Shown here one piece after another: positions 2,259-57,691 of a stretch of 64,000 bases of DNA (positions are counted from its first letter, which is position 1; every line of letters begins with the position of its first letter). The notes below the pieces were generated by a model. The model was not told where the DNA came from, searched no databases, and saw only the letters and a program-made list of their open reading frames with translations. The DNA lies in assembly GCA_022496185.1 (NCBI GenBank), contig WTXG01000019.1, positions 1 to 64,000 of the forward strand, written 5' to 3'. Origin of the DNA: Multifurca ochricompacta (Eukaryota > Basidiomycota > Agaricomycetes > Russulales > Russulaceae). The position numbers were made by a program, and so were the translations under genes.

Positions 2259-2569
2259 TGTTATGAACCCCGTCTCTTCCCGTTTACTTCTTTCTACCCA
2301 ATGACGACCCTTCCCTGCCACCCACTCTTCATTATCAGATTACGTCTCCATCGTGGGATCCCTCACGTGCTCTTCATCCATCCACGTGATCTCCTTGTTT
2401 ATCTCTGTGTGTTCATTATCATCTATGCTTATCACTTATCTCCTTATCATACGAACGGACATTTACTTAATTCCCTATCAGTAGAAGCTAGGCTTTACGC
2501 CCTCCGCTTTCAGATATTTGGGCCCACTTGACTCCATGACTCTTATCTATAGACGCCCATCCTCTTATG

Positions 2570-2615
2570 TATATAAGTCGGCTATAGTGTACACTGTAGA
2601 GCTCAGACTCGACTT
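2570..2615 (+). promoter_or_regulatory. LTR core promoter: TATA box and predicted transcript 5' end
   Basis: TATATAA at 2570-2576 is followed 35 nt later by AGACTCGACTT (2605-2615), a suitable distance for the transcription start. The 11-mer is exactly complementary to the primer-binding site at 2840-2850. The transcript start is inferred from this spacing; no start was measured. Confidence 0.65.
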
Positions 2616-2676
2616 ATTGAATACATCGGTGCCTGTCTTCTGGACATCCCCTTTGAAACTCTGACTCGTTCGTCTC

Positions 2677-2691
2677 AGTGCTTTTGGCACT
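2677..2691 (+). other. U5 hairpin AGTGC-TTTTG-GCACT
   Basis: A 5-bp stem with a 5-nt loop, placed about 70 nt downstream of the predicted transcript start. The same hairpin is found at the same place in every GypA, B, C and H LTR. In two families the stem changes on both sides together (AGTAC/GTACT), which supports an RNA structure. Confidence 0.65.
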
Positions 2692-2837
2692 TTCCACTTA
2701 ACATTGTCTCGAGGGGCAGCCCTTTGGACTTTGACTCACTTCACCCGAACTCCAGGAAGCCCTATTGACTTCCTACCTGAAACCGTAGATCGAGCTGTCA
2801 CACAAGTCGTGTGGAATGTCCCGCACCGGACATAACA

Positions 2838-2853
2838 TCAAGTCGAGTCTCTC
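2838..2853 (+). other. Self-complementary primer-binding site
   Basis: Immediately after the 5' LTR, TC is followed by AAGTCGAGTCT (2840-2850), the reverse complement of AGACTCGACTT at the predicted 5' end of the element's own RNA. It does not look like a tRNA 3'-end complement beginning TGG. In Tf1 of fission yeast, the first 11 nt of the mRNA fold back onto the primer-binding site and prime reverse transcription; the geometry here is the same. Confidence 0.7.
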
Positions 2854-7873: not shown

Positions 7874-9109
7874 ATGCTCTCACAGCAACGTCCTACCACT
7901 GAATCCTCTATCATGTCTTTCATTGCTGCCAACGCCGCCGTCGATGCTTTCACTGCCACCACTGTAGTTGTCGAGAACTTCCCATCCGCTCATCCCTCTA
8001 CACGCCCGTCGTCCCCCATTGATTATGAAGCAGCTGAAGCACGAGTTAAGAACCAATCCCCCAACCCCAATGATGACTTTGAACACAGCGAAGAGCCACA
8101 CCCGAATGATCTGCTGGGCATGGAGTTGGATGATGAAGTACCCGAATTCCCATTCATTGCTAACAATCCCAACTCCTCCATGTACTTCCCTCTCGAGATC
8201 ACCATGGCAGACGGGACCACTGCCATTGCCAATACATATTCTACACCAACGGAGGGATGGACGTCGCGGGATGTATGAAGAAGAATGGCCCTGTCTATGG
8301 GGCTCCGGTCTATTTGGAAGAAAGGTATACAGGACGCCTACACCATACTATGACCGATGAACAGCTCGGACACCTGGCTGCTGAGGACTCTCGCGCCTTT
8401 GCAATCGACGAAGTACTGAACGACATGCGCCTTCCGCGTCTCAAGGCAGAAGTAATGAGACTGCGGAAGAATCTGACGTTGCGCACCACACTCAATAAAC
8501 AGTACAAGGAACATGCGAAGATGATGGCGAGGTTGACCAATGGGATGTTCCAGATAGAGCAGGAGTTGGTAGAGATCAGAAAGAGGCTGGAGATAGGGGA
8601 TGCATACCAGACCATCGCCGAAAGGTACGCCGATACATATGCACGACCCCTCCCTCCACGGTCATTGGGGCTGCCCCGCAACTGCTGCCCAATCGATTCG
8701 AGATGCCGCGCATGCACGAAAACCCACGAGGAGAGACGTGCTGGCGATGTGACAGCAAGTATCACATCAGCTGGAATTGCCCACTCAACCGCAAGTGGTG
8801 CCGGCATTGTCGTAGCAACCTTCATTGGAGCCGTTTCTGCATTTTTCGCCGCGTAGGAGTTGCCCCGACGATCGTCAATCCATCAGGATGGTGTGGCAAG
8901 TGCCTCCGTCACAACTCGGGCATCGTGAACTAGACTGCCCAATTCATGACCTGTGCCATTCGTGTGGACAGCGTGGTCCATACGGATTTCTTCGCACCCA
9001 CCAGTGTCCACAAGATTCAGACAAGGAGAATTACACACTGGACGATCGTAATGTAGCTGACGATTACCTGGACTTGGTGCAGGATGATGACGGTACGAGT
9101 CGTTTCTAG
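7874..9109 (+). pseudogene. ORF3 of GypA-1: multi-zinc-module accessory protein (frameshifted)
   Basis: A third gene between pol and the 3' LTR, starting in the conserved context CCCCAGTACATG. Its parts, in order: a Ser/Pro/Ala-rich N-terminus; an acidic linker (DDEVPEFPF); a conserved globular segment (YFPLEI to VYLEERYTGR); a charged heptad-like region (LKAEVMRLRKNLT to EIRKRLE); two CCHC knuckles C-x2-C-x4-H-x4-C; a third module C-x2-C-x6-H-x4-C; a fourth C-x2-C-x11-H-x-C; and an acidic tail, VADDYLDLVQDDDG. Frameshifts near 8230, 8670 and 8925 break it. There is no signal peptide or membrane segment, so it is not an envelope protein. The function is unknown; nucleic-acid binding is inferred from the zinc modules. 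Confidence 0.8.
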
Positions 9110-9140: not shown

Positions 9141-9717
9141 TGTTACGAACCCCGTCTCTTCCCGTTTACTTCTTTCTACCCAATGACGACCCTTCCCTGC
9201 CACCCACTCTTCATTATCAGATTACGTCTCCATCGTGGGATCCCTCACGTGCTCTTCGTCCATCCACGTGATCTCTTGTTTATCTCTGTGTATTCGTTAT
9301 CGTCTATGCTTATCACTTATCTCCTTATCATACGAACGGACATTTACTTAATTCCCTATCAGTAGAAGCTAGGCTTTACGCCCTCCGCTTTCAGATATTT
9401 GGGCCCACTTGACTCCATGACTCTTATCTATAGACGCCCGTCCTCTTATGTATATAAGTTGGCTATAGTGTACACTGTAGAGCTCAGACTCGACTTATTG
9501 AATACATCGGTGCCTGTCTTCTGGACATCCCCTTTGAAACTCTGACTTGTTCGTCTCAGTGCTTTTGGCACTTTCCACTAACATTGTCTCGAGGGGCAGC
9601 TCCTCGGACTTTGACTCACTTCACCCAAACTCCAGGAAGTCCTATTGACTTCCTACCTGAAACCGTAGATCGAGCTGTCACACAAGTCGTGTGGAACGTC
9701 TCGCACCGGACATAACA
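9141..9717 (+). repeat. 3' LTR of GypA-1
   Basis: It begins TGTTACGAACC and ends GGACATAACA. It keeps several CpGs that the 5' LTR has lost (TTACG against TTATG, TTCGTTATCG against TTCATTATCA). It directly abuts the GypA-2 integrase fragment. Confidence 0.93.
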
Positions 9718-11406: not shown

Positions 11407-11495
11407 ATGCTCCCCCAGCAACATCCTACCACTATCCAATCCATTATGTCTTTCATTGCTGCCAACGCTGCCATCGATGCTTTCACCTCCTCCAC
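11407..11495 (+). pseudogene. ORF3 of GypA-2, N-terminal piece
   Basis: It opens with ATG in the CCCCAGTACATG context 38 nt after the pol stop and encodes the Ser/Ala-rich start including MSFIAANAAIDAF. The GypC-1 insertion cuts it after DAFTSST. It continues in frame at 26507 once one copy of the TCCAC duplication is removed. Confidence 0.85.
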
Positions 11496-12078
11496 TGTTA
11501 CGTCCGGTGCAGGACATTCCACATGACTTGTGTGACAGCATTCGTTCGTGATCAGATAAGGGATCAATAAGATCCCTTGGAGTTTATGCGGGAGGAGTCA
11601 GAGTCAAAGAGGCTGCACTCTAAGATAATGTTAAGCGGAAAGTACCAGAAGTACTGAGATGATCGAGTCAAGGCTTTCAAAGGGATGTCCAGAAGACAAG
11701 CACCGATGTATTCAATAAGTCGAGTCTGAAGTCTACAGCATAGCTACAGCGGACTTATATACGTAATCTAGTGGGCGTCTATAGATAAGATAACAGAGTC
11801 AAGTGGGCCCAAATATACGAAAGTGGATGGCATAAAGCCTGGCTTCTGATAGGGTACTAAGTAAGTGTCCGGTCCTAAGATAAGGAGATAGAATGATAAG
11901 AAGGTAAACATGAACAAGCATTGAGTCAACAGATACAAACTGAGTCACGGGGAAGGAAGCAAAGCATGTGATGGGTCCCAGGACGGGGATGTGATCAAGA
12001 AATGTAACGTAGGTGGTAACAGAGGGTTTGCATTGGGGAGAGTGAAGAAAGTGGGGTTGCTCAGCAAAGGTCGTAACA
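11496..12078 (-). repeat. 3' LTR of GypC-1 with adjoining polypurine tract
   Basis: On the minus strand it starts TGTTACGACC and ends GGACGTAACA. The complement of the 3' polypurine tract (AGAAGAGGGGGTGA on the minus strand) lies at 12079-12092, exactly at the U3 edge. The R motif AAGTCGAGTCT (plus-strand reading) is intact in this copy and mutated in the 5' LTR. Confidence 0.93.
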
Positions 12079-12109: not shown

Positions 12110-13345
12110 CTAGAAGCAACTCGTACCATCATCATCTTGTATCAGTTCCAGATAGTCATCAGCTACATTACGATCATCCAGAGTATCATTCTCTCTATCT
12201 GAGTCTTGTGGACATCTATGGGCGCGGAGGAACCCGTAGGGGCTGCGCTGACCACAGGAGTGGCAGAGATCGTGGATGGGGCAGTCTAACTCTTGATGCC
12301 CCGAATTGTGGTGGAGACATTTGCCACACCAACCTGATGGATTGATGATTGTCAGGGTAACACCTACATGGCAGAAGATGCAGAACTGGCTCCAGTGCAG
12401 GTTGCTGTGACAGTGACGGCACCACTTGCGATTGAGGGGACAGTTCCAGCTGATATGGTACTTACTGTTGCACTGCCAACATGTTTCCCTGCAGGGGTTT
12501 TCATGCATGCGTGGCATCTTGAACCGATTCGGCAGCAATGTCGGGGCAGCTCCTAATGATTGCAGGGGGAGGGGCCATGCATAAGTGTCCGCATACCTTT
12601 CTGCAATAGTTTGGTATGCATCTCCAATCTCCAATCTCTTTCTAATCTCCGTCAGCTCTTGTTCAACCTGGAACATCCCACTGGTCAACCTCATCATCAT
12701 CTTTGCATGCTCTTTGTATTGCTTGTTGAGTGTCGTTCGCAGCATCAGGTTTTTGTGCAGTCTCATTACCTCAGCTTTGAGACACGGGAGATGCATATCG
12801 TTCATCACTTCATCAATGGCGAACGCTTGGGAGTCTTCGGCAGCCAAGTGACCAAGCTGCTCATCACTCATCGTATGGTGGAGGCGTCCAGTATACCTCT
12901 CCTCCAAATACATGGGTGCCCCGTAAACAGGACCATTCTTCTTCATGCAGCTGGCCATGTCCATGCCTCCATTGGTATAAAAGATGTACTTAGCTATGGC
13001 CATGGTCCCATCCACCATAGTTATCTCGAGCGGAAAATACATCAACAAGTTCGGGTTGTTTGCAAAGAAGGGGAATTCAGGGACTTCGTCGTCCAGCTCC
13101 ATACCCAATAGATCGTTTGGGTGTGGTTCCTCACAGTGTTCGAAATTGTCGTTGGGGTTGGGGGACTGATTTTTGACTCGTGCTTCTGCAGCTTTGTAAT
13201 CGATAGGGGAGGAGGGGCATGTAGAGGGATGGGCAGAGGGGAAGTTTTCGACGACTATGACAGAGGTGAAGGCATCAACGGTGGCATTGGCAGCAATGAA
13301 AGACATGATTGACTGAGTGGTAGTAGGACGTTGCTGAGGGAGCAT
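12110..13345 (-). CDS. ORF3 of GypC-1: intact 411-residue multi-zinc-module protein
   Basis: The only full-length uninterrupted copy in the window. Approximate layout: residues 1-75 low-complexity Ser/Pro/Ala; 80-100 acidic; 100-180 conserved globular part containing YFPLEI and YLEERYTGRLHH; 185-250 charged, heptad-like, probably coiled coil; 290-305 first knuckle CWQCNSKYHISWNC; 311-325 second knuckle CRHCHSNLHWSQFC; 344-358 CGKCLHHNSGHQELDC; 365-385 a C-x2-C-x11-H-x-C module; last 30 residues acidic, with DDYLELIQDDDG. The start ATG is in the shared CCCCAGTACATG context, 39 nt after the pol stop. No hydrophobic segment long enough to cross a membrane is present. Nucleic-acid binding is inferred; the role in the element is unknown. 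Confidence 0.85.
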   Translation of the reverse strand: MLPQQRPTTTQSIMSFIAANATVDAFTSVIVVENFPSAHPSTCPSSPIDYKAAEARVKNQSPNPNDNFEHCEEPHPNDLLGMELDDEVPEFPFFANNPNLLMYFPLEITMVDGTMAIAKYIFYTNGGMDMASCMKKNGPVYGAPMYLEERYTGRLHHTMSDEQLGHLAAEDSQAFAIDEVMNDMHLPCLKAEVMRLHKNLMLRTTLNKQYKEHAKMMMRLTSGMFQVEQELTEIRKRLEIGDAYQTIAERYADTYAWPLPLQSLGAAPTLLPNRFKMPRMHENPCRETCWQCNSKYHISWNCPLNRKWCRHCHSNLHWSQFCIFCHVGVTLTIINPSGWCGKCLHHNSGHQELDCPIHDLCHSCGQRSPYGFLRAHRCPQDSDRENDTLDDRNVADDYLELIQDDDGTSCF

Positions 13346-13384
13346 GTACTGGGGAATTTCTTTGGGGTCTGCAGGTTGGTTCTT

Positions 13385-14560
13385 TTAACTGTTTCTGGGT
13401 GCTTCTGGATGTTGGTCATGAAACTCCAAGATAAGGGCCGGGGCAAAGATATTCCTGGCTGGCTCCCACGAGTTGTCAGAGTCTGGGAATCCTTTCCACT
13501 TGACTAGGTAATGCAGTTTGTGCCCTTGGCCTTTTCGCTGGGAGTCTAGAATCCGCTCCACTTCCCATTCCGCTTCCCCATCAATTAATTCAGGGGGAGG
13601 CTTCGGGAAGTTTTCCCCATGTAGGGACATTTCTCTATAAGGTGTCAGGAGCTTGGCATGGAAGACGGGATGAATTCTCCATGTGGATGGAAGCTCGAGT
13701 TCATATGACACATCTGACAGCTTCCTTGTTATCCTGAATGGTCCATGGCGTCGGGGCGCCAATTTGGCCATTGGATGTGACGTATGAATGTTCTTCCCTT
13801 CCAGCCAAATAAGGTCATTGGTCTGATAAGGTGTGAATTTCGAAGGTCTGTCCAATAAAGCCTTTTGTGCCTTGAGTAGGTTCTCATTGGCTGATTTCCT
13901 GACCTTGTTCCATTGGTCGATATGCTGTGCAGCTGATGGAACGTTCGTTGGTTTACTAGTCCAGGTTGTTTGTGGCATCCATCCCATGATAAGTGAGAAT
14001 GGAGGGGTCTTGGTGGTCCCGTTGGGCCATGAGTTGTGCACAAACTCTGCCATAGCCAGCCAATCAGCCCAATCATCCTGTCGTCCGTTGCACCAGAACC
14101 GAAGGTATTGTTCTAGCCATTGGTTCGTTCTTTCTGACTGTCCATCAGTCTGTGGATGGTAGGCAGTTGAAATGTTTTGAGTGATGTCCAAGGTTTTACA
14201 GAGCGCCTTAGCAAATGCGGAGGTGAAACATGGGTCGCGGTCAGAAATGATCTTTTCTGGGAGACCATAGTGTCTGTAGACATGATCCAGGTAAAGTTTG
14301 GCTACTCCCTCTGCTGTGATGGACTCATTGCATGTTATGAACAGTGCCACTTTGGAACAGTCGTGGTTGGTGATAGTCAAGATAGAATCGAAGCCTCTGG
14401 AGATGGGGAGCTTGACGATAAAGTCCATTGCAATGGTCTGGAATGGTAGTGAGGCTGTCGGTGTAATTGGGAACAGTGCTGGTGGGTGTGGGTGCATGTT
14501 TACTTTATTGGCTTGGCAGTCCGCACATCCTTTAACATAGTCTTCTACATCCTTTTTCAT
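13385..14560 (-). pseudogene. pol: pol C-terminal part of GypC-1: integrase and chromodomain
   Basis: A 391-codon open stretch: end of the integrase zinc finger (CADCQANK), catalytic core with MDFIVKLP, SDRDPCF and SERTNQ, GPF-type C-terminal region, then a chromodomain containing YLVKWKGFPDSDNSWEP. It stops at 13385-13387. It is cut off from the upstream pol by a TGA at about 14586 where relatives have CGA (AKRDYWW), so it is not expressed as a normal Pol. Confidence 0.88.
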
Positions 14561-16828: not shown

Positions 16829-18354
16829 GTGGCTTCATCCAGCTGCAGTCAGACCTTGCACAATGAAGAACTTATTGACCGCCGAGACGAGGATAACCTT
16901 TCACAACAGGTCCTTGGCTCTGCCATCTGGAAAGATTTGAAACCGAGTTTGGATACTATGTCTATCACAATGATCAGTACCAGCCAGTTGAATACGACGA
17001 ACAGAAATAGTCTGGTACCATATCCATTACTCTAGAAGCCATCGTTCCTGGGTCACCACAGGACCTGCCCCACCAGAGTACGGCTTAGGACCTTGGAGAG
17101 AGAATCCTCCAGCCATCATCACAGACTCCGAACCAAAGAATATATTGAAGAAAGCAGCGAAGATGCACAAGTCATAGCCCCTAGTTTTACGGCTCAGACA
17201 GTTGCACCCAAGAGTACTACATTCAGAACATCTGCTTTAGTCTCTCCCCAGATCACACGACAGACCTCAGACACCCCGACCCTCATGTACCCAATAATGT
17301 TGACCATTGCTGCACAGTTACCAGACCCCGCCCCGATTGTCCCTGCTCCGAACCTCCCCCCCCATCAGGACACCTTACGGGAGTCCTGCCAACCACGTTC
17401 ACCAGTGATCAATCTCAGAGCAAGAAGTTCATGCTCAAGTTTGAGACGTTCAAAAACTTCAATCATGATGTCCCACAAATCGTGAACCCTTTCCAACAGA
17501 CCAACCTTTTCCTCTCGCTTATCAGAGGGGATTCTGTCAATGATTGGACAATGGAGCAGATCGAATGGCTGAATGATAGAGTTACAGCTGGAACCAGAAC
17601 CACAGATGAGGATCTGTGGGATACAGTGGCGCAAAGATTTAAAGATGCCTTCACAGATGGGCAGGCCAAGCAGAAGGCTGCCAGAGAATTGAAGTCCCTG
17701 AAAATGGACAGAGGGGACTTGGATGGCTATGTGGCCAGATTCCGCAACCTGGCCAAGAGAGTGGGGTACAATGTGAATGAAGAGGCAACACTCGACCTCT
17801 TCTCCCAGGGGCTGCCCAACCCCCTGGTGAAAAATATCATCCAATTCCATCACCCCAAGTCATGGAGCCAGTGGATGAGTGCTGCCAGGACGCAGCAACA
17901 GGATTATTTAGACTTCCAAACATGTTTTGGAGTGGACACAAAGAAGGGCAAGACCCGTGATCAGTGGAAGGTGGCGTTTGGGGTGAAACCTACCCACTCT
18001 CGAGACCCCAATGCCATGGACACATCAGCAGATCGCACCAAAGCCCGTGCAGCCCTCACTGACGATGAAAAAAGAAACCTTATGAAGGAAGGGTGTTGCT
18101 TTCACTGCCGAGCACAAGGGCATATGTCACAATTCTGCCCAAAGAAAACAGTCTGTGCTGCTGAAGCAACAGTAGCCACTATGACCACAGCTCCACTGAT
18201 ACAAAACTTGCCTACTCCAGTGAAGGAAAATCCAGCAACCGTCCTGAAAACTAAAGAACAGAAGGCGGCAGCCATATGGGAACATATGATGAACAAAGAC
18301 GAGGCAGTACGTGCCTTAATTGTTGACAAGGCCTTCGGCCAAAAGGATTTTTGA
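16829..18354 (+). pseudogene. gag: gag of GypB-1 (frameshifted)
   Basis: It opens at GTG (CACCGTGGCTTC), as in GypA, C and H copies. The N-terminal segment (SQTLHNEELIDRRDEDNLSQ) is shifted after about 16940 and again before 17431. From 17431 the capsid-like region reads cleanly to a CCHC knuckle, CFHCRAQGHMSQFC, and ends at the frameshift site GGATTTTTGA (18345-18354). Its sequence diverges substantially from GypA gag, but the NIIQFHHP and FGVDTKKGK segments are kept. Confidence 0.86.
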
Positions 18355-21300: not shown

Positions 21301-21890
21301 ACGTACCATCTGTGGCACAGCGTATCGGCCAATGGGAGGAGATACGGGAATCGGCCAATAGAAATCTTCAGAAGGCGCAAAGGACCCTGGCTGAGAAGCC
21401 CACTAAGTTTACACCCTACCAGGTTGGGGACCAAGTCTGGCTAGAAGGGCGTCACATTCATACATCACATCCAATGGCAAAACTAGCTCCTAGATGCCAT
21501 GGCCCCTTCGTAATTGAACAGAAGCTCTCAGACATCATGTACAAGCTCACGTTACCTGCCACCTGGAAAATACACCCTGTCTTCCATGCCAGTCTCCTGA
21601 CACCATACAAAGAAACCTCTATTCATGGACAGAATTTTCCCAGACCCCCCCCTGACCTAGTTGATGGAGAGCCAGAATGGGAGGTAGAACGTATCACTGA
21701 CGCAAAATGGAAGGGCCAAGGGCACAATCGAAGGCTCCACTACTTGATCAAATGGAAGGGATTCCCGGATGCCGACAACTCGTGGGAACCTGCTGCGGAT
21801 GTCTTTGTGCCCAAGCTCATCGAAGACTTCTATAGGCGCCACCCAGAGGCAGATAAAGAGCCAGAGAAAATACGAATTGCTGAACCGTTC
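18347..21890 (+). pseudogene. pol: pol of GypB-1: PR-RT-RNase H-IN-chromodomain
   Basis: Protease ILIDSGATDNFIS (about 18480-18518); RT with YMDD near 19548; RNase H with NYDIWDRELLAIVKAL (to 20148); integrase zinc finger about 20600-20740, core MDFIVKLP (about 20818) and SERTNQ (about 21109); chromodomain with YLIKWKGFPDADNSWEP (about 21740-21795). TGA codons at 18519, 19389, 19848, 20148 and 21015 stand where relatives have Arg CGA. The reading frame does not stop after the chromodomain but runs directly into ORF3. Confidence 0.88.
20574..20608 (+). other. Internal polypurine tract of GypB-1
   Basis: The same invariant 35 nt as in the other families, although this element is the most divergent. 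The 3' tract of this element (GAGAGGGGGTAA, just before 23143) is less like the GypA tract than the internal one is. Confidence 0.68.
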
Positions 21891-23111
21891 CCTCCCCCAC
21901 AACTGACCAGAAGCTCACCTATGTCACCATCCAAGATCCATGCCTCTGCCGCCATCGATGCATTTCCCGTACTTACTCCTGTGCATCCTCCTTCTTGCCC
22001 ACTTTCTCCTATTAACTACGATGCAACCGCCCAAGTGGCCCAAGGGGACAGAATCATCGACATCAATGAAGATTTTAATCTGCCCAAACACCCCCATCCC
22101 AACGACCTGATCAACGTAGATTTTGGCGATGAGTCCCCTGAGTTCCCCTTCTTTCCTAACGATCCAAATTCACAATTCTACTTCCTGCTTATGATCCCAT
22201 CATCCAAAAACAACGGCACTATGGAGGTGGCCAAATACATCTACTACACCAACGAAGGTATGGACGTAGCTGGGTGTCTGGAAAAAGGAGGGCCTGTCTA
22301 TGGAGCTCCAGTCTATTTGGAGGAAAAGAATGTCAATCAGCTGCATTACGTCTTGGGGCCTGAACATTTGCAACACCTCTCGGCCCATGACCCACACGCT
22401 TTTGCTATCAATGAGGTGCTTCGGGATCTCCGTATGCCACGACTGACGGCCGAGATTGCGCAACTTTGCAAGTTCCAGGTGCTCCAGGACAACCTGGAGA
22501 TGCAGCGTTGTGATTACGAGCGACAGATGGTGAAGATTAATCGGGGGGTTTTCGACATAGAGCATCACCTGGCCAGCATCAGGACAAGGCTGGAGCGAGG
22601 GGAGGCGTACCAGATTATATCTGAACGGTACGCAGATATCTTTGCTCGACTGCTCCCCCGTTGCCACCTCAACCTTGCACCTCAACTCAACCCCCATTGC
22701 TTCGAAATGCCACGCCTCCATGAAAACCCCGACGGTAAGCTTTGCTGGTGCTGTAGCAGCAAGTACCACCTTAGCTGGTGTTTTCCCATGGCCAAGAAAT
22801 GATGTCGACACTGCCAGAGCACCTCACACTGGAGCCATCAATGCCTATTCCGATGACTTACACAGGCCCCCACCGTCCAGAACCCGTCTGGATGGTGTGG
22901 CAAGTGTCTCTCCCATAACGCCGGACATCGAGAAATCGATTGTCATGTCTACGATGGCTGCTTTCGCTGTGGGAGGCGAGGGCCCTACGGTTTTCTACGA
23001 ACACACGTTTGCCCCACAGACAACGAAAAAGAAAATTATGATGCAGACCACTACGCCGTAGCTGACGACTATCTCTCCTTGGTTCAGGACGACGATGGTA
23101 TGCCACTCTAG
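21891..23111 (+). pseudogene. ORF3 domain of GypB-1, fused in frame to Pol
   Basis: The frame 21027-22802 continues from the chromodomain (FYRRHPEADKEPEK) without a stop into the ORF3 sequence. The acidic linker (GDESPEFPFF), globular part (KYIYYTNEGMDVAG), coiled-coil-like region and first knuckle (CWCCSSKYHLSWCF) are all there. A TGA at 22800-22802 replaces the Trp codon before the second knuckle. Beyond it the same frame keeps CRHCQSTSHWSHQC, the third module, the fourth module and the tail VADDYLSLVQDDDG, stopping at 23109-23111. Zinc ligands are kept although the rest is very different from GypA ORF3, indicating purifying selection before the copy died. Confidence 0.8.
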
Positions 23112-25923: not shown

Positions 25924-26506
25924 TGTTATGTCTGGTGCGGGACATTCCACATGACTTGTGTGACAGCATTCATTCGTGATCAGATAAGGGATCAATAAGA
26001 TCCCTTGGAGTTTATGTGGGAGGAGTCAGAGTCAAAGAGGCTGCACTCTAAGATAATGTTAAGCGGAAAGTACCAGAAGTACTGAGATGATTGAGTCAAG
26101 GCTTTCAAAGGGATGTCCAGAAGACAAGCACCGATGTATTCAATAAGTCAAGTCTGAAGTCTACAGCGTAGCTACAGCGGACTTATATACGTAATCTAGT
26201 GGGTGTCTATAGATAAGATAATGGAGTCAAGTGGGCCCAAATATACGAAAGCAGATGGCATAAAGCCTGGCTTCTGATAGGGTACTAAGTAAGTGTCCGG
26301 TCCTAAGATAAGGAGATAGAATGATAAGAAGGTAAACATGAACAAGCATTGAGTCAACAGATACAAACTGAGTCACAGGGAAGGAAGCAAAGTGTGTGAC
26401 AGGTCCCAGGACGGGGATGTGATCAAGAAATGTAACGTAGGCAGTAACAGAGGGTTCGCATTGGGGAGAGTGAAGAAAGTGGGGTTGCTCGGCAAAGGTC
26501 GTAACA
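25924..26506 (-). repeat. 5' LTR of GypC-1, with primer site
   Basis: 583 bp. The primer site lies at 25911-25921 (AGACTCGACTT in plus-strand reading, so AAGTCGAGTCT on the element's strand). The U5 hairpin is AGTAC-TTCTG-GTACT (26069-26083), with both stem positions changed relative to the usual AGTGC/GCACT. The R motif has lost its CpG (26145-26155). Confidence 0.93.
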
Positions 26507-27660
26507 TCCACCATCATCATCGAAAACTTCCCTTCTGCCCACCCCTCGACACGTCCCTCTTCCCCCATTGACTACAAAGCCACAGAGGCACACACCAAAA
26601 ACCAATCCCCCAATCCCAATGACGACTTTGAACACTGTGAGGAGCTGCACCTGAACAACCTATTAGGTATGGAGATGGATGATGAGGTCCCAGAGTTCCC
26701 CTTCTTCACCAACAATCCGAACTCCTCAATGTACTACCCTCTGGAGATTACCATGGCAGACGGAACAGTCGCCATAGCTAAGTATATCTTCTACACAAAT
26801 GGAGGTATGGATGTCGCAGGATGCATGAAGAAGGATGGCCCTGTCTACAGGGCACCAGTCTATCTGGAGGAAAGGTATACAGGCCACCTCCACCATATGA
26901 TGAGCGATGAGCAGCTTGCACATTTGGCTGCTGAAGATTCATGGGCCTTTGCAATTGATGAGGTCCTGAACGACATGCACCTTCCATGTCTCAAGGCTGA
27001 GGTCATGAGACTGTGGAAGAACCTGACGTTGTGCATGATGCTCAACACCCAATACAAGGAACATGCAAAACGAATGACGAGACTGACAAGTGGGATGTTC
27101 CAAGTGGAGCAGGAGCTGGTTGAGATTTGAAAGAGGTTGGAACAGGGGGACGCATACCAAACTATTGCCGAGAGGTACGCAGACACTTACACATGCCCCC
27201 TTCCACCACAGTCATTGGGAGCTGCACCAATGCTGCTGCCCAACTGATTTGAAATGCCACACATGCACGAGAACCCCAAGGAGAGACATGTTGGCGATGC
27301 GATAGCAAGTACCACATTAGTTGGTACTGCCCTCTCAATCGCAAGTGGTGCCACCATTGTCACAGCAATCTGCACTGGAGTAGGTTCTGTATTTTCTGCC
27401 ATGTGGGCATGGCCCCGATGATCATCAATCCATCAGGTTGGTGCAGCAAGTGCTTACATCACAACTTGGGGCATTGCGAGCTCGACTGCCTGATCCACGA
27501 TCTATGCTACCAGTGCAGACAACGGGGTCTGTATGGATTCCTGCGCACCCATAGATGCCCCCAGGATTTGGACAAAGAGAACGACACCCTCAATGATTGT
27601 AATGTAGCTGATGACTATTTGGAACTGGTGCAGGATGATGACAGTACAAGTCATTTCTAG
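26507..27660 (+). pseudogene. ORF3 of GypA-2, main piece
   Basis: It continues the frame interrupted at 11495: IIIENFPSAHPSTRPSSPIDY, acidic linker, globular part, coiled-coil-like region, then the zinc modules CHHCHSNLHWSRFC and CSKCLHHNLGHCELDC and the tail DDYLELVQDDD. TGA codons at 27128 and about 27245 replace Arg CGA, and there is a frameshift around 27275, so it is dead. Confidence 0.84.
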
Positions 27661-30003: not shown

Positions 30004-30636
30004 TACAGTGGATCAAAACACTGTCCTGATGTTGGCACCATTTCTAGTATTCACTTTATAGCACCTCAGCATTTAGGAATCTGGTTATTGTGTGGCTGTA
30101 TGTCTGAAAGCCCTGCTTCCTGGCTACCATACCCAATTTGGATCAAAGAAAGTGGCCATGATATAAGCATTTTATGATCAAATCAAATCAATCAATCATT
30201 GGGACAGTTTTTTGACCCACATTTTAAATCCACTATCTGCCCAAATACTACTTTATTTCACCCCTTTTTGCCTTGGTAAATCCTTGAATCCTTTTAGTCA
30301 TCCTTTCTATAACCTTTTGCCATCATTCTGGTGCATTTTTATTCCACTCCTCCACCACCCTCTCCCACAACTCAGGTACCCCCTTGACTGGTTAAGAACC
30401 TTCTTCAGATCCACCCAGAGGTGTCCAATGGGGCTAATATTTCAAGGGATTGGGCTATCCATACCAGGCTTCAATATTCCTGTCTTAAAACTGCTGGTTT
30501 GCCTTCTTGGAATTGTGTTTTGGGTCATTGTCCTGCTGAAACATGGTTTCACCCTCCACCATTTCCAACTTTTCAAACCTTTCCACCACTCCACCATCCA
30601 AAATATCACAGTACTGGCATGGATTCATGATCCCCT

Positions 30637-31046
30637 TGTGGAAACGCAGCTGAGGTTAGATAAGCGCTACCTAAACGGGTAGCAAGATAATTCAGTTGTG
30701 AATGGTCAAAACTATATATTAATTAGTCTTTACCTAAACGGGTAGCAAGATAACTACGCGAGTAATGTTAGCTATACGCGTGGTAAAGATAATCTAAGTA
30801 AATACTCACTTCAGTTGTGAATGGTCAAAACTGAAGTGTACAACACAGAAATAATGTCCTTAAATACTGTAAAGAGTGTGCTGTGCTATGGTCATAAAGG
30901 ATTGTATCTTTAATCATAAGTAATCATAGTAAACGAGTGGAATGTCAGTAGGTATATTACAATGTCCACTTAACTCCATCTTGCACCGGCAACTCCGGTC
31001 ACCTCTGATCCGGTCCGGCCAACTCTGATCCGTTACCGGCTCAACA
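30637..31046 (+). repeat. GypG solo LTR (unclassified, 410 bp)
   Basis: It starts TGTGGAAACG and ends GGCTCAACA, flanked by CCCCT on both sides (30632-30636 and 31047-31051). It has two pairs of direct repeats: ACCTAAACGGGTAGCAAGAT (30669 and 30732) and TTCAGTTGTGAATGGTCAAA (30691 and 30810). Strand is assigned only from TG to CA and is ambiguous. The short length would fit a Ty1/copia LTR, but nothing internal remains to show this. Confidence 0.85.
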
Positions 31047-41074: not shown

Positions 41075-42312
41075 ATGCTCCCTCAGCAACGTCCTACCTC
41101 CGAACAATCCATTATGTCTTTCATTGCTGCTAACGCCACCGTTGACGCCTTCACCGCCACCACCGTGGTCGTCGAGAATTTTCCCTCTGCTCATCCCTCC
41201 ACACATCCCTCCTCACCCATCGACTACGAGGCCGCAGAAGCCCGAGTCAAAAGACAATCCCAAATCCCAACGATGACTTTGACCACAGCGAAGAGCCGCA
41301 CCCAAACGACCTTTTGGGTATGGAATTAGATGACGAGGTCCCAGAGTTTCCATTTATTGCTAACAACCCCAACTCCTCCATGTATTTCCCCCTGGAGATC
41401 ACAATGGCCGATGGGACAACTGCCATCGCCAAGTATATCTTTTATATGAATGGGGGAATGGATGTGGCTGGATGCATGAAGAAGGGTGGCCCCGTTTATG
41501 GAGCTCCTGTTTATTTGGAGGAAAGGTATACTGGACGCCTCCATCACACGATGACCGACGAGCAACTGGGGCATTTGGCTGCAGAAGACACATGAGCCTT
41601 TGCCATTGACGAAGTACTCAACGACATGCGGCTCCTGCGCCTCAAGGCTGAGGTCATGAGGCTGCAGAAGAACCTGACGCTCCGTTCCACGCTCAACAGA
41701 CAGTATAAGGAGCACGCGAAGATGATGGCAAGGCTGACGAATGGGATGTTCCAGATAGAGCAGGAGTTGGTGGAGATTCGAAAGAGACTGGAAATAGGGG
41801 ACACGTACCAAACCATCGCTGAAAGGTACGCCGACACTTATGCACGGCCTCTCCCCCCACGATCCTTGGGCGCAGCCCCTGTGCTGCTGCCCAACCAATT
41901 CGAGATGCCACGCATGCATGAGAATCCCCGCGGTGAAACATGCTGGTGCTGCGATAGCAAGTACCACATCAGCTGGAACTGCCCACTCAACTGCAAGTGG
42001 TGCCGTCATTGTCGCAGCAACCTGCATTGGAGCCGATTCTGCATCTTTCGCCAGGTAGGAGTCGCTCTGACGATCAGCAACCCGTCAGCATGGTGTGGCA
42101 AGTGCCTCCGACATAACGCGGGACACCGTGAATTGGATTGTCCGATCCATGACCTCTGCCGCTCCTGTGGGCAACACGGCCCTTATGGGTTCCTCCGTAC
42201 TCACCAATGTCCACAAGATTCAGACAAGGAGAACTACACGCTGGATGATCGTAATGTAGCGGATGACTATCTGGATTTGGTACAGGATGATGACAGTACG
42301 AGTCGTTTCTAG
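41075..42312 (+). pseudogene. ORF3 of GypA-3
   Basis: Starts in CCCCAGTACATG, 38 nt after the pol stop. A frameshift near 41262 and a TGA at 41593 (where Arg is expected) break it. From 41626 to 42312 a 228-codon stretch keeps the coiled-coil-like region, CWCCDSKYHISWNC, CRHCRSNLHWSRFC, CGKCLRHNAGHRELDC, CRSCGQHGPYGFLRTHQC and the acidic tail. All zinc ligands are present. Confidence 0.84.
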
Positions 42313-44784: not shown

Positions 44785-45248
44785 CTAGAAATGCGCACCA
44801 TCATCATCCTGCATCAAATCCACATAATCATCTGCTAGGTTTCGATCCCCTATAGTGTAAGTTTTGTCCGCCACACATTGGTGTGTGCGCAGAAAGCTGT
44901 ATGGACCATGTTGTCTGCATTGGCGGCACAGGTCGTAGACTGGACAGTCGAGCTTGCGATGTCCTGCGTTGTGTCGCAGACACTTTCCACACCAGCCCAA
45001 GGGATTGACAATGGTGGGAGCGACACCGAGGCGTCGGAAAATGCAGAACCGACTCCAATGTAGGTTGCTTCGGCAGTGACAGCACCATTTGCGATTGAGG
45101 GGGCAATTCCAGCTTATGTGGTACTTGCTGTCACATCACCAGCAAGTCTCTCCTTGGGGGTTTTCATGCATACACGGCATCTCAAATCGGTTTGGCAGCA
45201 GTTGTGGTGCTGCTCCTAGCGATCATGGGGGGAGGGGTTGAGTGTAGG
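44785..45248 (-). pseudogene. ORF3 of GypH-1, C-terminal piece with zinc modules
   Basis: The minus strand carries a first knuckle (C-W-x-C form near 45140), a second knuckle near 45100, CGKCLRHNAGHRKLDC, CRQCRQHGPYSFLRTHQC and the acidic tail DDYVDLMQDDDG. It is cut at 45248 by GypF copy 2 and continues at 45845. Confidence 0.8.
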
Positions 45249-45839
45249 TGTGACACTTTCTTACTAGTATTTCGTGTTTTCTCTCTCTTTTTGTCTTCTA
45301 TGCCCCTTTCTTTCACTGTATACCTTATCAGATCCACTTATCTGATGGCCATAGTCTGGACAAGGGATTCAACTCCCATGTCATCTGATTGATGATCTCA
45401 TAGTTGATGTCATAGACCTTGTGACCTTAGTATGACCTCATAGATGATATCATGACCATTGTGACCTACTATGATATCATTTGTACAAGACTCTAGACTA
45501 TGACTTCATAGTAGCTACATTGTATTTAAGGACTACAATAAATCCAAGGACAGACTAAGTCTGTTCTCCTTGTACCAATCAAAGGTCCTTAGGAAGTCCC
45601 TTCAGCCCTCTTCCAAGATGTGACTTGAGAGGGTTTGGCTCACCAGTAGCTCCAGCAAAGGCTCTTGCCTTGCTATCTGAACACCCTGACTTCACACGCA
45701 ATGTTCAGACTCGTTGCCTTGATCCACACTGGCTGCACGCTGTGATGTCTTGACTTGACTTAACACTTGCATACCTTGATTACCTTGTGACCCTGACCTG
45801 AACCCGAACCAATGCACACCGAAGGACCTGTGTGCAACA
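45249..45839 (+). repeat. GypF solo LTR, copy 2
   Basis: 591 bp, closely similar to 34610-35201, with a perfect GTAGG duplication (45244-45248 and 45840-45844). It carries the same tandem repeat with TGATGTCAT and TGATATCAT units. Confidence 0.94.
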
Positions 45840-45844
45840 GTAGG

Positions 45845-45929
45845 TATCTGCGTACCTCTCAGCAATCATCTGATATGCATCCCCTATCTCCAGCCTTTTC
45901 CGAATCTCCATCAACTCCTGCTCTACCTG
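45845..45929 (-). pseudogene. ORF3 of GypH-1, short middle piece
   Basis: 85 bp of the coiled-coil-like region (minus strand QELMEIRKRLEIGDAYQMIAER), trapped between the GypF and GypI solo LTRs. It connects the pieces on either side in frame. Confidence 0.8.
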
Positions 45930-46533
45930 TGTTATGCTCAGAGGGGCGTACACAATCGAGTGCGGGCGGCTAGGTCACAGGGACAAGGTCGGGACGATCT
46001 TGGGTTGATGCAGAAGACAATAAGTCCAACGCTGTGCTCAGTCACAAGCCAATCAGTGTGCAAGGCCCCAGAAGGACAAAGCACCAAAGAGAGGAGTCCG
46101 GGTGGTGAGACGCAAGGAAGGAAGTTAAAGGTCCACAAGGCTACTGATTGTCACAGGAGCTCAAGATGGGGAACCATCTGAGCAAGACTAGCTAGGGTAT
46201 ATATACATGCTGGTACTAGCTTAGTCATCCGTTCTTATCAGGCTTATCTAGACGCTTGTGGTTCTGGACGTGTGACTATGGAACCTTCCATCAGAACCAG
46301 TGCCACTGTCTTCCCATGTCAACTAAGGTTCAGGGTCCTTCTGTACACGAGGCATCAAACCTTACTGTCACGTGATCTGCTTCTGTACCTCATGCCGTAT
46401 CTGTCTTCTGGACTTCGGCATGGGACATCATGACTAAGCCGGCGATGTCCTTGCGGACTCCGCGCGGCTGCTGTCACTGCTTGTGTGTCCCCACGTCTTG
46501 CCGTCTGTCGGGTATGCTGGGTAGGTCGTAACA
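45930..46533 (+). repeat. GypI solo LTR (604 bp)
   Basis: TGTTATGCTC to GGTCGTAACA, with a perfect ACCTG duplication (45925-45929 and 46534-46538). A TATA-like TATATATACATG lies near 46199. The sequence is unrelated by eye to the GypA-H LTRs except for the terminal TGTTA and GTAACA. No internal region is present. Confidence 0.92.
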
Positions 46534-46969
46534 ACCTGGAACATCCCCCTTGTAAGCCTTGTCATTTGTTTTGCATATTCTTTGTACTGGGTATTGAGCG
46601 TGGTGCAAAGCATGAGGGTTTTCCGCAGTCTCATTACTTCGGCCTTGAGACGCGGAAGCCGCATGTCGTTCAATACCTTGTCGATTGCAAATGCTTGGGG
46701 GTTGTCAGCTGCGAGATGCCCCAACTGTTCGTCACTCATCGTGTGGTGGAGACGACCTGTGTATCGCTCTTCCAGGTACACTGGGGCCCCATAGACAGGC
46801 CCATCCTTTTTCATGCACCCTGCGACATCCATTCCTCCATTGGTGTAAAATATGTACTTAGCTATGGCTTTCTCTCCATCGGCCATGGTAATTTCGAGGG
46901 GAAAGTACATGGAGGAATTTGGATTGTTGGCAAAGAAGGGGAATTTGGGTACATCGTCATCTTGCTCCA
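46534..46969 (-). pseudogene. ORF3 of GypH-1, central piece
   Basis: The minus strand reads MEQDDDVPKFPFFANNPNSS, the globular part with YLEERYTGRLHH, and the start of the coiled-coil-like region (LKAEVMRLRKTLML). It is open throughout. It is bounded by the GypI LTR and GypA-4 and continues at 54480 as DLLDME. Confidence 0.84.
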
Positions 46970-47562
46970 TGTCACAACCTTTACTGAGTAACCCCATCTT
47001 CTTTACCCTCCCTAATGACGACCCCTCTCTTCCACCCATGCTGCACTTCATGATTACGTCTCCATCCTGGGACCCATCACATGCCTTACTCCCATCCCCA
47101 TGACACACTTTGGACTTGTTGACTTGTTGATTACCTATGTTTGCTGTGTTATCGTCTTATCTCGTTATCTCTTTATCTTTACGACTGGACACTTACTTAA
47201 TTCCCTATCAGAAGCCAGGCTTTACGCCCTCCGCTTTCATATATTTGGGCCCACCTGACTCCAGTATCTTATCTTGTAGACACCCATCTGATTATGCATA
47301 TAAGCCCGCTGTAGCTACACTGTAGACTTCAGACTCAACTTATTGAATACATCAGTGCTTGTCTTCTGGACTTCCCTTTGAATGCCTTGACTCAATCATC
47401 TCAAGTACTTCTGGTACTTTCCACTCAACATTGTCTTAGAGTGCAGCCTCTTCGACTTTGACTCCTCCCATATAACTCCAAGGGGCCTTATTGGTTTCTT
47501 ATCTAATAACAAACAAACGCTGTCACACAAGTTGTGTGGAACATCCCGCACTGGACGTAACA
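46970..47562 (+). repeat. 5' LTR of GypA-4, with covarying U5 hairpin
   Basis: It starts TGTCACAACC and ends GGACGTAACA. The hairpin AAGTAC-TTCTG-GTACTT at 47405-47421 has a G-C pair replaced by A-T on both sides. The R motif AGACTCAACTT (47331-47341) and the primer site AAGTCAAGTCT (47565-47575) have each lost the CpG on opposite strands. Confidence 0.93.
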
Positions 47563-52616: not shown

Positions 52617-53855
52617 ATGCTCTCCCAGCAACGTTCTAACACTATCCACTCTATCATGTCTTTTGTCGCTGCCAACGCCGCTGTCGATGCCTTCATGGCC
52701 ACCACCATAGTTATCGAGAACTTCCTGTCCGCCCACCCTTCTACACGCCCCTCATCACCCATTGACTACGAGGCCGCCGAAGCTCAGGTCAAAAACCAAT
52801 CCCCGAACCCGAATGATGACTTTGAACACAGTGAAGAACCACACCCGAATGACCTATTAGGTATGGAGTTAGATGATGAAGTACCGGAGTTCCCATTCTT
52901 CACCAACAACCCCAACTCCTCGACCTACTTCCCCCTCGAGATCACCATGGCTGATGGAACTGTCGCCATCGCCAAATACATATTCTACACGAATGGAGGA
53001 ATGGATGTCGCTGGATGCATGAAGAAGGACGGCCCTGTCTACGGGGCCCCGGTCTACTTGGAGGAAAGGTACACAGGACGCCTTCATCACACGATGACTG
53101 ATGAGCAGCTTGGACACCTGGCCACCGAGGATTCTCGCGCCTTTGCAATTGACGAAGTATTGAACAATATGCACCTTCCGTGTCTCAAGGCAGAAGTGAT
53201 GAGACTGCAGAAGAATCTGACGCTGCATACAACACTCAACAAACAATACAAGGAGCATGCGAAGATGATGGCGAGGCTGACTAATGGGATGTTCCAAGTG
53301 GAGCAGGAGTTGGTGGAAATCAGAAAGAGGCTGGAGCGAGGAGATGCATACCAGACCATCACTGAACGGTATGCTGACACATATGCACAACCCCTCCCCC
53401 CACGATCGCTGGGGGCCGCCCCAAGGCTGATACCAAACCGGTTCGAAATGCCACGAATGCACGAGAACCCCCACAGAGAGACATGTTGGTGATGCGACAG
53501 TAAGTACCACATCAGCTGGAACTGTCCCCTCAACTGCAAGTGGTGCCAGCACTGTCATAGCAACCTCCACTGGAGCCGGTTTTGCATTTTCCGCCATGTA
53601 GGAGTTGCCCCGACAGTTGTCAATCCATCGGGGTGGTGTGGCAAATGCCTCTGCCACAACTCCGGGCACCGCGAGTTGGACTGTCTGATCCATGACCTGT
53701 GCCAACTATGTGGTCAACGCAGCCCATATGGGTTTCTTCGCACCCACCAATGCCTGCAGGACTCGGATAAGGAGAATTACACATTGGATGGTCATAATGT
53801 AGCCAATGATTATTTGGACTTGGTGCAGGATGATGATGGTATGAGTTGTTTCTAG
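52617..53855 (+). pseudogene. ORF3 of GypA-4 (single nonsense codon)
   Basis: 292 codons are open from the CCCCAGTACATG start, 37 nt after the pol stop, to a TGA at 53490-53492 that replaces Arg CGA inside the first knuckle (CW-stop-CDSKYHISWNC). Beyond the stop the frame continues with CQHCHSNLHWSRFC, CGKCLCHNSGHRELDC, CQLCGQRSPYGFLRTHQC and the acidic tail to TAG 53853-53855. One base change separates it from an open frame. Confidence 0.86.
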
Positions 53856-56430: not shown

Positions 56431-57620
56431 CTAGAAACGCGCACCATCGTCATCCTGGACCAAGTCCACATAGTCATCTGCCAAATTCCGATCCTCCACA
56501 GTGTAAGTTTCATCTGTGGCACATTGATGCGTGCACAGAAACCCATATGGGCTGCGTCATCCACACTGGCGACACAGGTCGTAGACAGGGCAGTCAAGCT
56601 CGCGATGTCCCGCATTATGTCGTAGACATTTTCCGCACCAACCTGAGGGATTGACGATGGTGGGAGCAACGCCCAGACGTCGGAAAATGCAGAACCGGCT
56701 CCAATGTAAGTTACTTCGGCAGTGACGACACCATTTGTGATTGAGCAGGCAATTCCAACTGATGTGATACTTGCTGTCACATCGCCAGCAAGTCTCTCCG
56801 TGGGGGTTTTCGTGCATGCGTGGCATCTCGAATCGGTTTGGCAATAGTTGTGGCGCCGCTCCTAATGATCGTGGGGGAAGGGGTCGTGCGTAGGTGTCTG
56901 CGTACCTCTCGGCAATTGTCTGATATGCGTCCCCCTTCTCCAGTCTCTTCCGAATCTCTGTCAACTCCTGCTCCACTTGGAACATCCCCCTTGTAAGCCT
57001 TGTCATCTGTTTGGCATATTCTTTGTACTGGGTGTTGAGCGTGGTGTGAAGTGTGAGGGTTTTCCGCAGCCTCATTACTTCGGCTTTGAGGCGCGGGAGT
57101 CGCATGTCGTTCATCACCTCATCGATGGCAAAGGCTCGGGGGTCGTCAGCTGCAAGGTGTCCTAACTGTTCATCACTCATTGTGTGGTGGAGACGGCCTG
57201 TGTACCATTCCTCCAAATAAACCGGGCCCCGTAAACAGGTCTGTCCTTTTTCATACATCCCGCGACATCCATCCCTCCATTGGTGTAGAATATATATTTT
57301 GCTATGGCCTTTTCTCCGTCAGCCATGGTGATTTCGAGGGGGAAGTACATTGATGAGTTGGGATTGTTGGCAAAGAATGGGAACTTGGGCACTTCGTCAT
57401 CTTGTTCCATACTGATGAGATCATTGGGGTGGGGCTCTTCAGCATGGGTGAAGTCGTCGTCAGGATTGGGTGACTGGTTCTTGACTCGTTCTTCTGTGGC
57501 CTCATAGTCAATAGGGGAGGAAGGGCGAGTGGAGGGGTGAGCGGAGGGGAAAGCCTCTACAACCACATGAGTGGTAGTGAAGGTGTCGATAGTGGTGGAG
57601 GCAGCGATGAAAGAAGACAT
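56431..57620 (-). pseudogene. ORF3 of GypH-2
   Basis: Starts MSSFIAASTTIDTF at 57620. Acidic linker (EQDDEVPKFPFF), globular part with a one-base break around 57225, then a 233-codon open stretch with the coiled-coil-like region, CWRCDSKYHISWNC, CRHCRSNLHWSRFC, CGKCLRHNAGHRELDC and CRQC. A TGA near 56555 breaks the last module, whose remainder (YGF, acidic tail) is still visible to the TAG at 56431-56433. Confidence 0.84.
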
Positions 57621-57691
57621 ATTGGTTGTGGTTAGGACGTTGCTGGTGAAGCGGTGTTCTGGGGAAGAAGAGGTCGGGAATCCATCCTCTT

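What the first reader, a model, noticed from the sequence alone, without database searches (positions are those of the whole stretch)
7874..9109. A third retrotransposon gene (ORF3) with four zinc modules, conserved in four families
Between the chromodomain and the 3' LTR, every GypA, B, C and H element here has about 1.2 kb encoding the same protein plan: Ser/Pro-rich start, acidic linker, unique globular segment, coiled-coil-like centre, two C-x2-C-x4-H-x4-C knuckles, a C-x2-C-x6-H-x4-C module, a C-x2-C-x11-H-x-C module, and the tail DDYLxLVQDDDG. Copies are at 7874, 11407+26507, 12110 (intact), 21891, 41075, 52617, 56431 and in pieces in GypH-1. The zinc ligands are shared even by the divergent GypB-1. 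Ty3/gypsy elements normally end with pol; extra 3' genes are usually envelope-like, but no signal or membrane segment is present here. I do not recognise the globular segment.
Basis: partly seen in the sequence, partly recalled or inferred. Interest (0 to 1): 0.88.

Follow-up and report, generated by a model that had tools for sequence, protein, structure and literature searches.

The report
Extra zinc-finger protein in fungal retrotransposons
A large group of probably fungal jumping genes carries an extra, strongly preserved protein with four zinc-binding modules after its usual last enzyme; it matches no described family in the libraries searched, and about half of the related enzymes examined carry some extra protein at the same place.

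Summary
Chromodomain-bearing Ty3/gypsy elements in this window carry a ~411-aa protein between chromodomain and 3' LTR. In the host assembly (53.8 Mb) the GypA query matched 101 scored copies and the GypB query 130, both lower bounds. All 16 zinc ligands are invariant in 27 stop-free copies spanning two groups ~50% identical. Among 25 stop-free GypA-type copies median dN/dS is 0.041 and pN/pS 0.084, lower than for the pol C-terminus: a real, selected gene. Correction: in the GypA/C type it is a separate ORF starting 33-41 nt after the pol stop, in no fixed frame; in GypB it is fused in frame to pol. No match in Pfam, NCBIfam or a word-seeded search of ~5.8 billion proteins; PDB gave only weak nucleocapsid and LIN28 knuckle matches. 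Of 106 environmental chromoviral pols with a recognisable chromodomain, 56 have post-chromodomain extensions, and one group (P0118) may share ORF3's globular domain. Best reading: a Pol-associated, oligomeric, nucleocapsid-like nucleic-acid-binding cofactor that is, or began as, a Pol C-terminal module. Function is inferred. A new variant of a known kind (additional ORF of an LTR retrotransposon).

The parts
12110..13345 (-). ORF3, the only open full-length copy in the window (411 aa)
12821..13060 (-). acidic/globular segment, residues ~96-175; fold unknown; residues 96-206 align with a Pol-fused extension of environmental chromoviruses
12584..12787 (-). long helix / coiled-coil-like centre, residues ~187-254 (only residues ~201-240 reach pLDDT 70-79 in a model that is poor overall)
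12440..12481 (-). zinc module 1, C-x2-C-x4-H-x4-C (289-302)
12380..12421 (-). zinc module 2, C-x2-C-x4-H-x4-C (309-322), 6 residues after module 1
12281..12328 (-). zinc module 3, C-x2-C-x6-H-x4-C (340-355)
12212..12265 (-). zinc module 4, C-x2-C-x11-H-x-C (361-378)
13346..13387 (-). pol stop TAA and 39-nt spacer ending in the conserved CCCCAGTAC just before the ORF3 ATG
13385..14560 (-). pol 3' part: integrase core, Tf2-1-like SH3, chromodomain
7874..9109 (+). ORF3 of the element named in the finding; broken by frame shifts (pieces in frames 2, 1, 3, 2)
21891..23111 (+). GypB ORF3 domain, fused in frame to pol (ORF 21027-22802); internal TGA stops at 22800 and 22854, final TAG at 23109
41075..42312 (+). 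ORF3 copy, one frame shift and one in-frame stop in the second piece
52617..53855 (+). ORF3 copy (GypC) with one internal TGA at 53490; starts 37 nt after the pol stop
56440..57632 (-). ORF3 copy, one frame shift and one stop
44794..46970 (-). ORF3 in pieces (GypH)
26489..27657 (+). ORF3 residues 22-411 (with stops) of a copy whose residues 1-34 lie at 11407-11508
2259..2837 (+). 5' LTR of the element of the finding (97.1% identical to the 3' LTR)
9141..9717 (+). 3' LTR of the element of the finding
2605..2615 (+). AGACTCGACTT, 35 nt after the start of a TATATAAG, complementary to the site after the LTR: likely 5' end of the transcript (inferred)
2840..2850 (+). AAGTCGAGTCT, likely primer-binding site of self-priming (Tf1/sushi) type
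17431..18354 (+). GypB gag part with its own single CCHC knuckle (CFHCRAQGHMSQFC)

Best explanation
ORF3 is an extra protein of a self-priming chromovirus lineage in a probable basidiomycete. It is a post-chromodomain module of Pol: fused to Pol in GypB, a separate cistron directly behind pol in the GypA/C type. Shown: position, four conserved zinc modules, strong purifying selection, fusion in one family, separate start in the other. Inferred: the coiled-coil centre oligomerises it; the basic zinc region (two knuckles spaced much as in retroviral nucleocapsid, plus two more) binds element RNA/cDNA; and because one family makes it as part of Pol, it acts where Pol acts, as a packaging, reverse-transcription or pre-integration cofactor adding to the single knuckle of Gag. 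In the GypA/C type it is probably translated by re-initiation after the pol stop or from a spliced message.
For: Selection: 25 stop-free GypA-type copies, 300 pairs (295 used), median dN/dS 0.041; median pN/pS 0.084 over 300 pairs, against 0.156 for the last 350 aa of pol (10 copies, 45 pairs). Zinc ligands 16 of 16 invariant in 27 rows, where 148 of 411 columns are invariant. By my count 71 of the 101 listed copies have no internal stop (these are the best-scoring of 2188 candidates, so biased to good copies). GypB fusion: 13 of 19 printed GypB loci keep a chromodomain WKG and the ORF3 globular motif in one open frame; L043 (889 aa) and L045 (648 aa) run to the tail. Separate cistron: in 29 of 30 GypA-type loci the ORF3 ATG follows the pol stop after 33-41 nt, in all three frame relations (10, 7, 12). 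Of 20 PDB matches at E<=5, the 13 in the zinc region are 9 retroviral nucleocapsid/Gag and 4 LIN28 knuckle sequences, all weak (best E 0.099). Zinc region pI 9.4 in L005 and 8.6 in P0001, between acidic segments and tail. A profile of P0118, P0123, P0109 and L076, holding no ORF3, hits only ORF3 besides itself: 26 of 26 hits at E<=1 among 3468 segments; 20 column-shuffled profiles gave one ORF3 hit in all.
Against: No biochemical or expression data. Both AlphaFold runs failed (mean pLDDT 38 and 39), so neither fold nor zinc sites are modelled. Similarity to nucleocapsid is no better than generic knuckles; 7 of the 20 weak PDB matches are other proteins, mostly coiled coils. Gag already has a knuckle in 6 of 6 gag regions looked at, so a second nucleocapsid is not obviously needed. 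The link to the P0118 group is weak alone (hhalign E 0.004-0.005, one of 9 extension groups tested; 0.02 with L076 added; ORF3 against L076 directly 0.14). In single-sequence tests an apparently unrelated tail, P0117, scored as well (E 0.016, 30 columns). The P0118-group profile without L076, and L076 alone, do not find ORF3 clearly, and the 26 hits are related copies, not independent events.
Confidence: 0.45

Rival explanations
1. ORF3 is a regulator of unspliced genomic RNA (Rev- or CERV-like): made from a spliced message, it multimerises on the RNA and takes it out of the nucleus.
For: An AG sits 4-5 nt before the ATG in 33 of 34 copies, mostly in CCCCAG or TTTCTTCAG, inside an otherwise fast-changing spacer; position, coiled coil and RNA-binding-type zinc modules fit. 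[quoted passage not shown] A loose NES-like pattern recurs near residue 178 in 25 of 25 copies, but also at three other places in 23-25 copies, so it means little.
Against: No GTRNGY donor is shared by the three window elements compared and no branch-point motif is conserved. In GypB the protein is fused to Pol, which a separate early regulator would not be.
Confidence: 0.2
2. ORF3 guides integration: as an extension of the integrase end it binds DNA or chromatin next to the chromodomain and sets target choice.
For: It follows the integrase chromodomain directly, fused to it in GypB, as other extensions are in environmental chromoviruses, which vary much at this end.
Against: In the GypA/C type it is a separate protein; knuckles of this spacing are typical of RNA/ssDNA binding (recalled); insertion sites were not analysed.
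Confidence: 0.15
3. ORF3 is a counter-defence protein, for instance a suppressor of RNA silencing or of CpG-directed mutation.
For: Many copies show TGA stops, the signature of CpG decay, so the host probably acts against the element; Cys-rich zinc proteins are often suppressors (recalled).
Against: No direct support; counter-defence proteins usually evolve fast (recalled), whereas this one is more constrained than the pol end.
Confidence: 0.08
4. ORF3 is an envelope-like gene.
For: Position between pol and 3' LTR.
Against: No clear membrane segment: the highest 19-residue hydropathy is 1.62 in P0001 (residues 13-31, borderline) and 1.45 in L005; zinc modules and a basic region are unlike envelopes.
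Confidence: 0.02

Closest known systems
CERV of the C. elegans LTR retrotransposon Cer1 (PMC10309623; abstract and passages seen)
   Same: extra protein between pol and 3' LTR of a gypsy/Ty3 element, not resembling envelope, with a predicted dimerisation segment; an acceptor-like CAG lies before the start
   Different: no homology shown; CERV is joined from several exons and the passages shown describe no zinc module in it; here one family has the protein fused to Pol
Sense additional ORFs (aORF-3S) of plant LTR retrotransposons (PMC7264820; passages seen)
   Same: sense ORF between pol and 3' LTR conserved in a family
   Different: described mainly as envelope-like; the word zinc does not occur in that text
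ORF3s of bdelloid rotifer LTR elements (PMC5408684; passages seen)
   Same: non-envelope ORF3 after pol
   Different: those are GDSL esterases or DEDDy exonucleases (others envelope-like); the word zinc does not occur
Retroviral nucleocapsid (tandem CCHC knuckles)
   Same: two C-x2-C-x4-H-x4-C knuckles 6 residues apart in a basic region; weak profile matches
   Different: not part of Gag; two further, differently spaced modules; E-values 0.15-3.6
Post-chromodomain Pol extensions of environmental chromoviruses, P0118 group (found here)
   Same: position right behind the chromodomain, Ser/Pro-rich start, collinear 108-column match ending at the start of the coil
   Different: no zinc part in the stored proteins, which end at that point; similarity weak
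Tf1/sushi-type self-priming chromoviruses (recalled)
   Same: chromodomain integrase and an 11-nt sequence after the 5' LTR complementary to the likely transcript start
   Different: no third protein recalled for them

Membership tests
Chromovirus (Ty3/gypsy with chromodomain) | integrase core + Tf2-1-like SH3 + chromodomain at the Pol end | tested here: met
Chromovirus (Ty3/gypsy with chromodomain) | gag, RT and two LTRs | tested here: met
Self-priming (Tf1/sushi-type) elements | sequence behind the 5' LTR complementary to the transcript's first bases instead of to a tRNA | tested here: met
   11-nt complement in 4 of 4 elements: perfect in two, one CpG-type change in the third, two in the fourth; the transcript start is inferred from a TATA-like box, and tRNA priming was not searched for
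Retroviral nucleocapsid | tandem CCHC knuckles with a short basic linker (6-7 residues, recalled) | tested here: met
Retroviral nucleocapsid | C-terminal part of Gag | tested here: not met
   encoded behind pol; Gag has its own knuckle
Retroviral nucleocapsid | significant sequence homology | tested here: not met
   best nucleocapsid E 0.15
Envelope-like ORF3 | transmembrane segments | tested here: not met
   hydropathy only, one window borderline; no signal-peptide program was run
CERV/Rev-type export factor | product of a spliced subgenomic mRNA | tested here: inconclusive
   conserved acceptor-like AG (33 of 34) but no shared donor or branch point
CERV/Rev-type export factor | needed for export of genomic RNA | not testable with these tools
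   needs an experiment
P0118-type post-chromodomain extension | homologous globular + coil-start segment | tested here: inconclusive
   hhalign E 0.004-0.005 over 107-108 columns; profile specificity 26 of 26; same register
Captured host gene | homologous single-copy cellular gene | tested here: inconclusive
   no Pfam, NCBIfam or protein-database match; low-copy genes of the host could not be screened behind the many element copies

The most novel reading that the evidence does not exclude
Basidiomycete chromoviruses as a group carry a fast-diversifying accessory module behind the chromodomain, as Pol extension or separate cistron, of which this four-zinc protein is one form: a second, Gag-independent nucleocapsid-like component that travels with Pol.
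Probability: 0.3. Interest if true: 0.75.

Novelty: new variant of a known kind. Interest (0 to 1): 0.58.

Why it matters
Ty3/gypsy chromoviruses are taught to end with the integrase and its chromodomain. Here a coding segment better preserved than the pol end it follows lies behind it, in families with well over a hundred copies in one genome, and matches no protein family searched. If the module acts with Pol, it shows how elements without an envelope gain new functions at the integrase end; fused and unfused versions of the same protein make the question directly testable by proteomics and RNA-seq. It also gives a profile for annotating fungal genomes, where copies of this ORF would otherwise be called orphan host genes.

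Tried and rejected
Rejected: chance ORF (dN/dS); envelope (hydropathy only); a fixed read-through or frameshift fusion in the GypA type (spacers fall in all three frames). Left open: splicing (acceptor-like AG but no donor or branch point); host gene capture.

Led nowhere: Pfam, NCBIfam, PDB and protein-database searches with the single protein and with a 10-row profile; three viral-contig scans; two structure predictions, so no fold search was run; an exact DNA pattern for the tail; genome searches with P0039 and P0101, whose lists held pol matches only; paper searches, in whose listings I saw no title or abstract start describing a fungal chromovirus with this protein. Passages only were seen of PMC10627285, PMC2864245, PMC5408684, PMC9289625, PMC3411680, PMC10309623, PMC7264820 and PMC11963269. 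That is not proof that it is not in print: the library lacks most subscription papers and bioRxiv.

Dropped rows: dN/dS used 25 of 30 GypA-type loci (5 with stops or a shifted cut), and for pol the 10 loci whose last 350 aa are open; per-region dN/dS dropped pairs with unmeasurable dS (zinc region 204 of 300 used, globular 221 of 300). One search printed 19 of 30 GypB loci (11 lacked the landmark motif). In one search the script found a clean pol end in 23 of 30 loci, none in 2, an interrupted one in 4, and misplaced L013; one search measured the spacer from the TTAAAA at the pol stop instead (29 of 30; L009 has unrelated sequence). One search used 106 of 123 stored proteins (those with a WKG-type motif).

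Full report
WHAT IS THERE. The window is part of contig C101 of a 53.8 Mb assembly in 605 contigs. The host is probably a basidiomycete; this is my inference from the kind of elements and genome size, not a test. Four copies sit in elements with both LTRs, ~580 bp long and 95.9-97.2% identical within a pair; the ORF3 stop lies 30-31 nt before the 3' LTR, just upstream of a purine-rich tract. Pol upstream has integrase core, Tf2-1-like SH3 and chromodomain. The gag regions looked at have one knuckle each (6 of 6; domain call on one of them).

COPY NUMBER. In the whole genome the GypA query matched 101 copies, all that were scored of 2188 first-look candidates, and the GypB query 130, all that were scored of 1825; both are lower bounds. 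By my count 71 of the 101 listed GypA-type copies have no internal stop, but the list is of the best-scoring copies. Nearly all stops that occur are TGA, as CpG-to-TpG decay of CGA codons would give.

SELECTION. Twenty-five stop-free GypA-type copies gave a median dN/dS of 0.041 (295 of 300 pairs used; Nei-Gojobori). Synonymous sites are largely saturated, so uncorrected values are safer: median pN/pS 0.084 over 300 pairs, 0.083 in the 53 pairs with pS below 0.5. The last 350 aa of pol in 10 copies (45 pairs) gave 0.156; ORF3 in the 7 copies shared with that set gave 0.074. GypA against GypB (50 pairs): pS 0.76, pN 0.32, ratio 0.42, with pS at saturation, so only a weak statement. By region the globular part (0.031, 221 of 300 pairs) and the zinc part (0.036, 204 of 300) have the lowest medians, the N-terminus (0.071) and tail (0.080) the highest. 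All 16 zinc ligands are invariant in 27 rows including two GypB copies; 148 of 411 columns are invariant, and 47 of 96 within the zinc region.

TWO ARRANGEMENTS. In GypA-type copies pol ends HPEAPKxS-TAA or similar. In 29 of 30 loci the ORF3 ATG follows the stop after 33-41 nt, in all three frame relations (10, 7 and 12 loci), so no fixed read-through or frameshift can join them (one search gave 23 loci with a clean pol end and the same range). The GypC copy at 52617 has 37 nt. The spacer changes fast but is bracketed by TTAAAAG and CCCCAGTACATGCT. An AG precedes the ATG by 4-5 nt in 33 of 34 copies; the exception, L009, has unrelated sequence upstream. No donor of the form GTRNGY is shared by the three window elements compared, and no branch-point motif is constant. 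Three of 33 spacers contain another ATG (L022, L027, window 11407). In GypB there is no stop between chromodomain and ORF3: 13 of 19 printed loci keep a WKG and the ORF3 motif EFPF in one frame, and L043 (889 aa) and L045 (648 aa) run to the end; the 9 loci printed in frame have no stop from WKG into ORF3. So the same protein is made as a Pol domain in one family and as its own product in the other type.

HOW WIDE. The single protein and a 10-row profile find nothing at E<=0.001 in a word-seeded search of ~5.8 billion predicted proteins, though the same database holds at least 7525 matches to the GypA pol, the best about 59% identical. That control shows chromoviruses are sampled, but not close kin of this clade. 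Of 106 stored proteins with a WKG-type chromodomain motif, 56 continue at least 76 aa beyond the point 35 residues after it. These tails fall into nine groups of two or more and 10 singletons; the four largest have 16, 8, 8 and 4 members and 30-95% identity inside groups. The list is limited to proteins up to 684 aa, so longer extensions are missing. One group (P0118, P0123, P0109, P0119) aligns with ORF3 residues 96-206 over 107-108 collinear columns at 24% identity, hhalign E 0.0042-0.0047. Nine groups were tested, so this is suggestive, not proof; as single sequences P0109, P0117, P0039, P0118 and P0123 scored E 0.012-0.023, of which P0117 looks unrelated. P0118 searched against the genome independently gave alignments that run through the pol stop into the ORF3 region and end at P0118 residue 652 in 4 of 68 listed places; at C586 that end matches ORF3 residue ~207, the register of hhalign. 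The P0118 tail also found a divergent family in the same genome (ten weak matches, best E 0.0035); its representative L076 matches the P0118 group at E 3.8e-5 over 83 columns, but ORF3 directly only at E 0.14. L076 in turn has 121 matches at E<=1 among 142 scored places, many around 29% identity in open frames of 200-460 aa; I could not read these. A profile of P0118, P0123, P0109 and L076, searched against 3468 six-frame segments of the window and fetched loci (137 of them ORF3), hit only ORF3 besides itself (26 of 26 at E<=1, best E ~0.03); 20 column-shuffled profiles gave one ORF3 hit altogether. The hits are related copies and count as few independent events. The same profile without L076, or L076 alone, gave no clear result. 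Two other chromovirus families of this genome, seen in one (L073) and two loci (L074, L075), show no ORF3: no match of the ORF3 profile there and no ORF of 150 aa or more behind the pol of L074 and L075; L074 breaks off within the chromodomain, and L073 runs into another element's pol.

WHAT IT DOES. Shown: architecture and selection. From knowledge of retroviruses: tandem CCHC knuckles 6-7 residues apart are the hallmark of nucleocapsid and bind RNA and single-stranded DNA. The profile's PDB matches in the zinc region are of that kind but weak (13 sequences, best E 0.099; the other 7 of 20 are mostly coiled coils). Inferred: oligomerisation by the coiled-coil centre, nucleic-acid binding by the basic zinc part, and action together with Pol because one family makes it as Pol. 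A Rev/CERV-like export role is the main rival; the CERV paper itself asks whether 3' ORFs of other LTR elements act in that way (PMC10309623, passages).

SIDE RESULT. The elements appear to be of the self-priming type: AGACTCGACTT, 34-35 nt behind the start of a TATA-like box in the LTR, is complementary to AAGTCGAGTCT directly after the 5' LTR, perfectly in two of four elements, with one and two CpG-type changes in the others.

VERDICT. A genuine, strongly selected protein of LTR retrotransposons that no library searched here describes; the kind (additional ORF behind pol) is known, the protein and its fused/unfused arrangement are new to the sources I could search.

Noticed in passing
2605-2615 and 2840-2850; 16570/16809; 35795/36032; 47331/47565: Self-priming signature: 11-nt LTR sequence complementary to the site after the 5' LTR, with a TATA-like box 34-35 nt upstream.
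   Followed up: partly
ORF3 copies genome-wide; window 12110-13345: Internal stops are almost all TGA and the 12110 copy is CpG-depleted (observed/expected 0.53): CpG-directed mutation of repeats.
   Followed up: partly
L076 (contig C110) and about 80 weaker places listed: Further open frames, many of 200-460 aa, related to L076, perhaps other families' versions of the module; not readable here.
   Followed up: partly
proteins P0086, P0078: Other post-chromodomain extensions with a C-x2-C-x5-6-C-x-H/C motif, another possible zinc module at the same place.
   Followed up: no
environmental pols: Several distinct conserved groups of post-chromodomain extensions (16, 8, 8, 4 members) without a known function.
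   Followed up: partly
window 28296-33107, minus strand: A different chromovirus family in the window (pol 42%, RT 44-49% identical); a relative elsewhere (L073) has no ORF3.
   Followed up: partly
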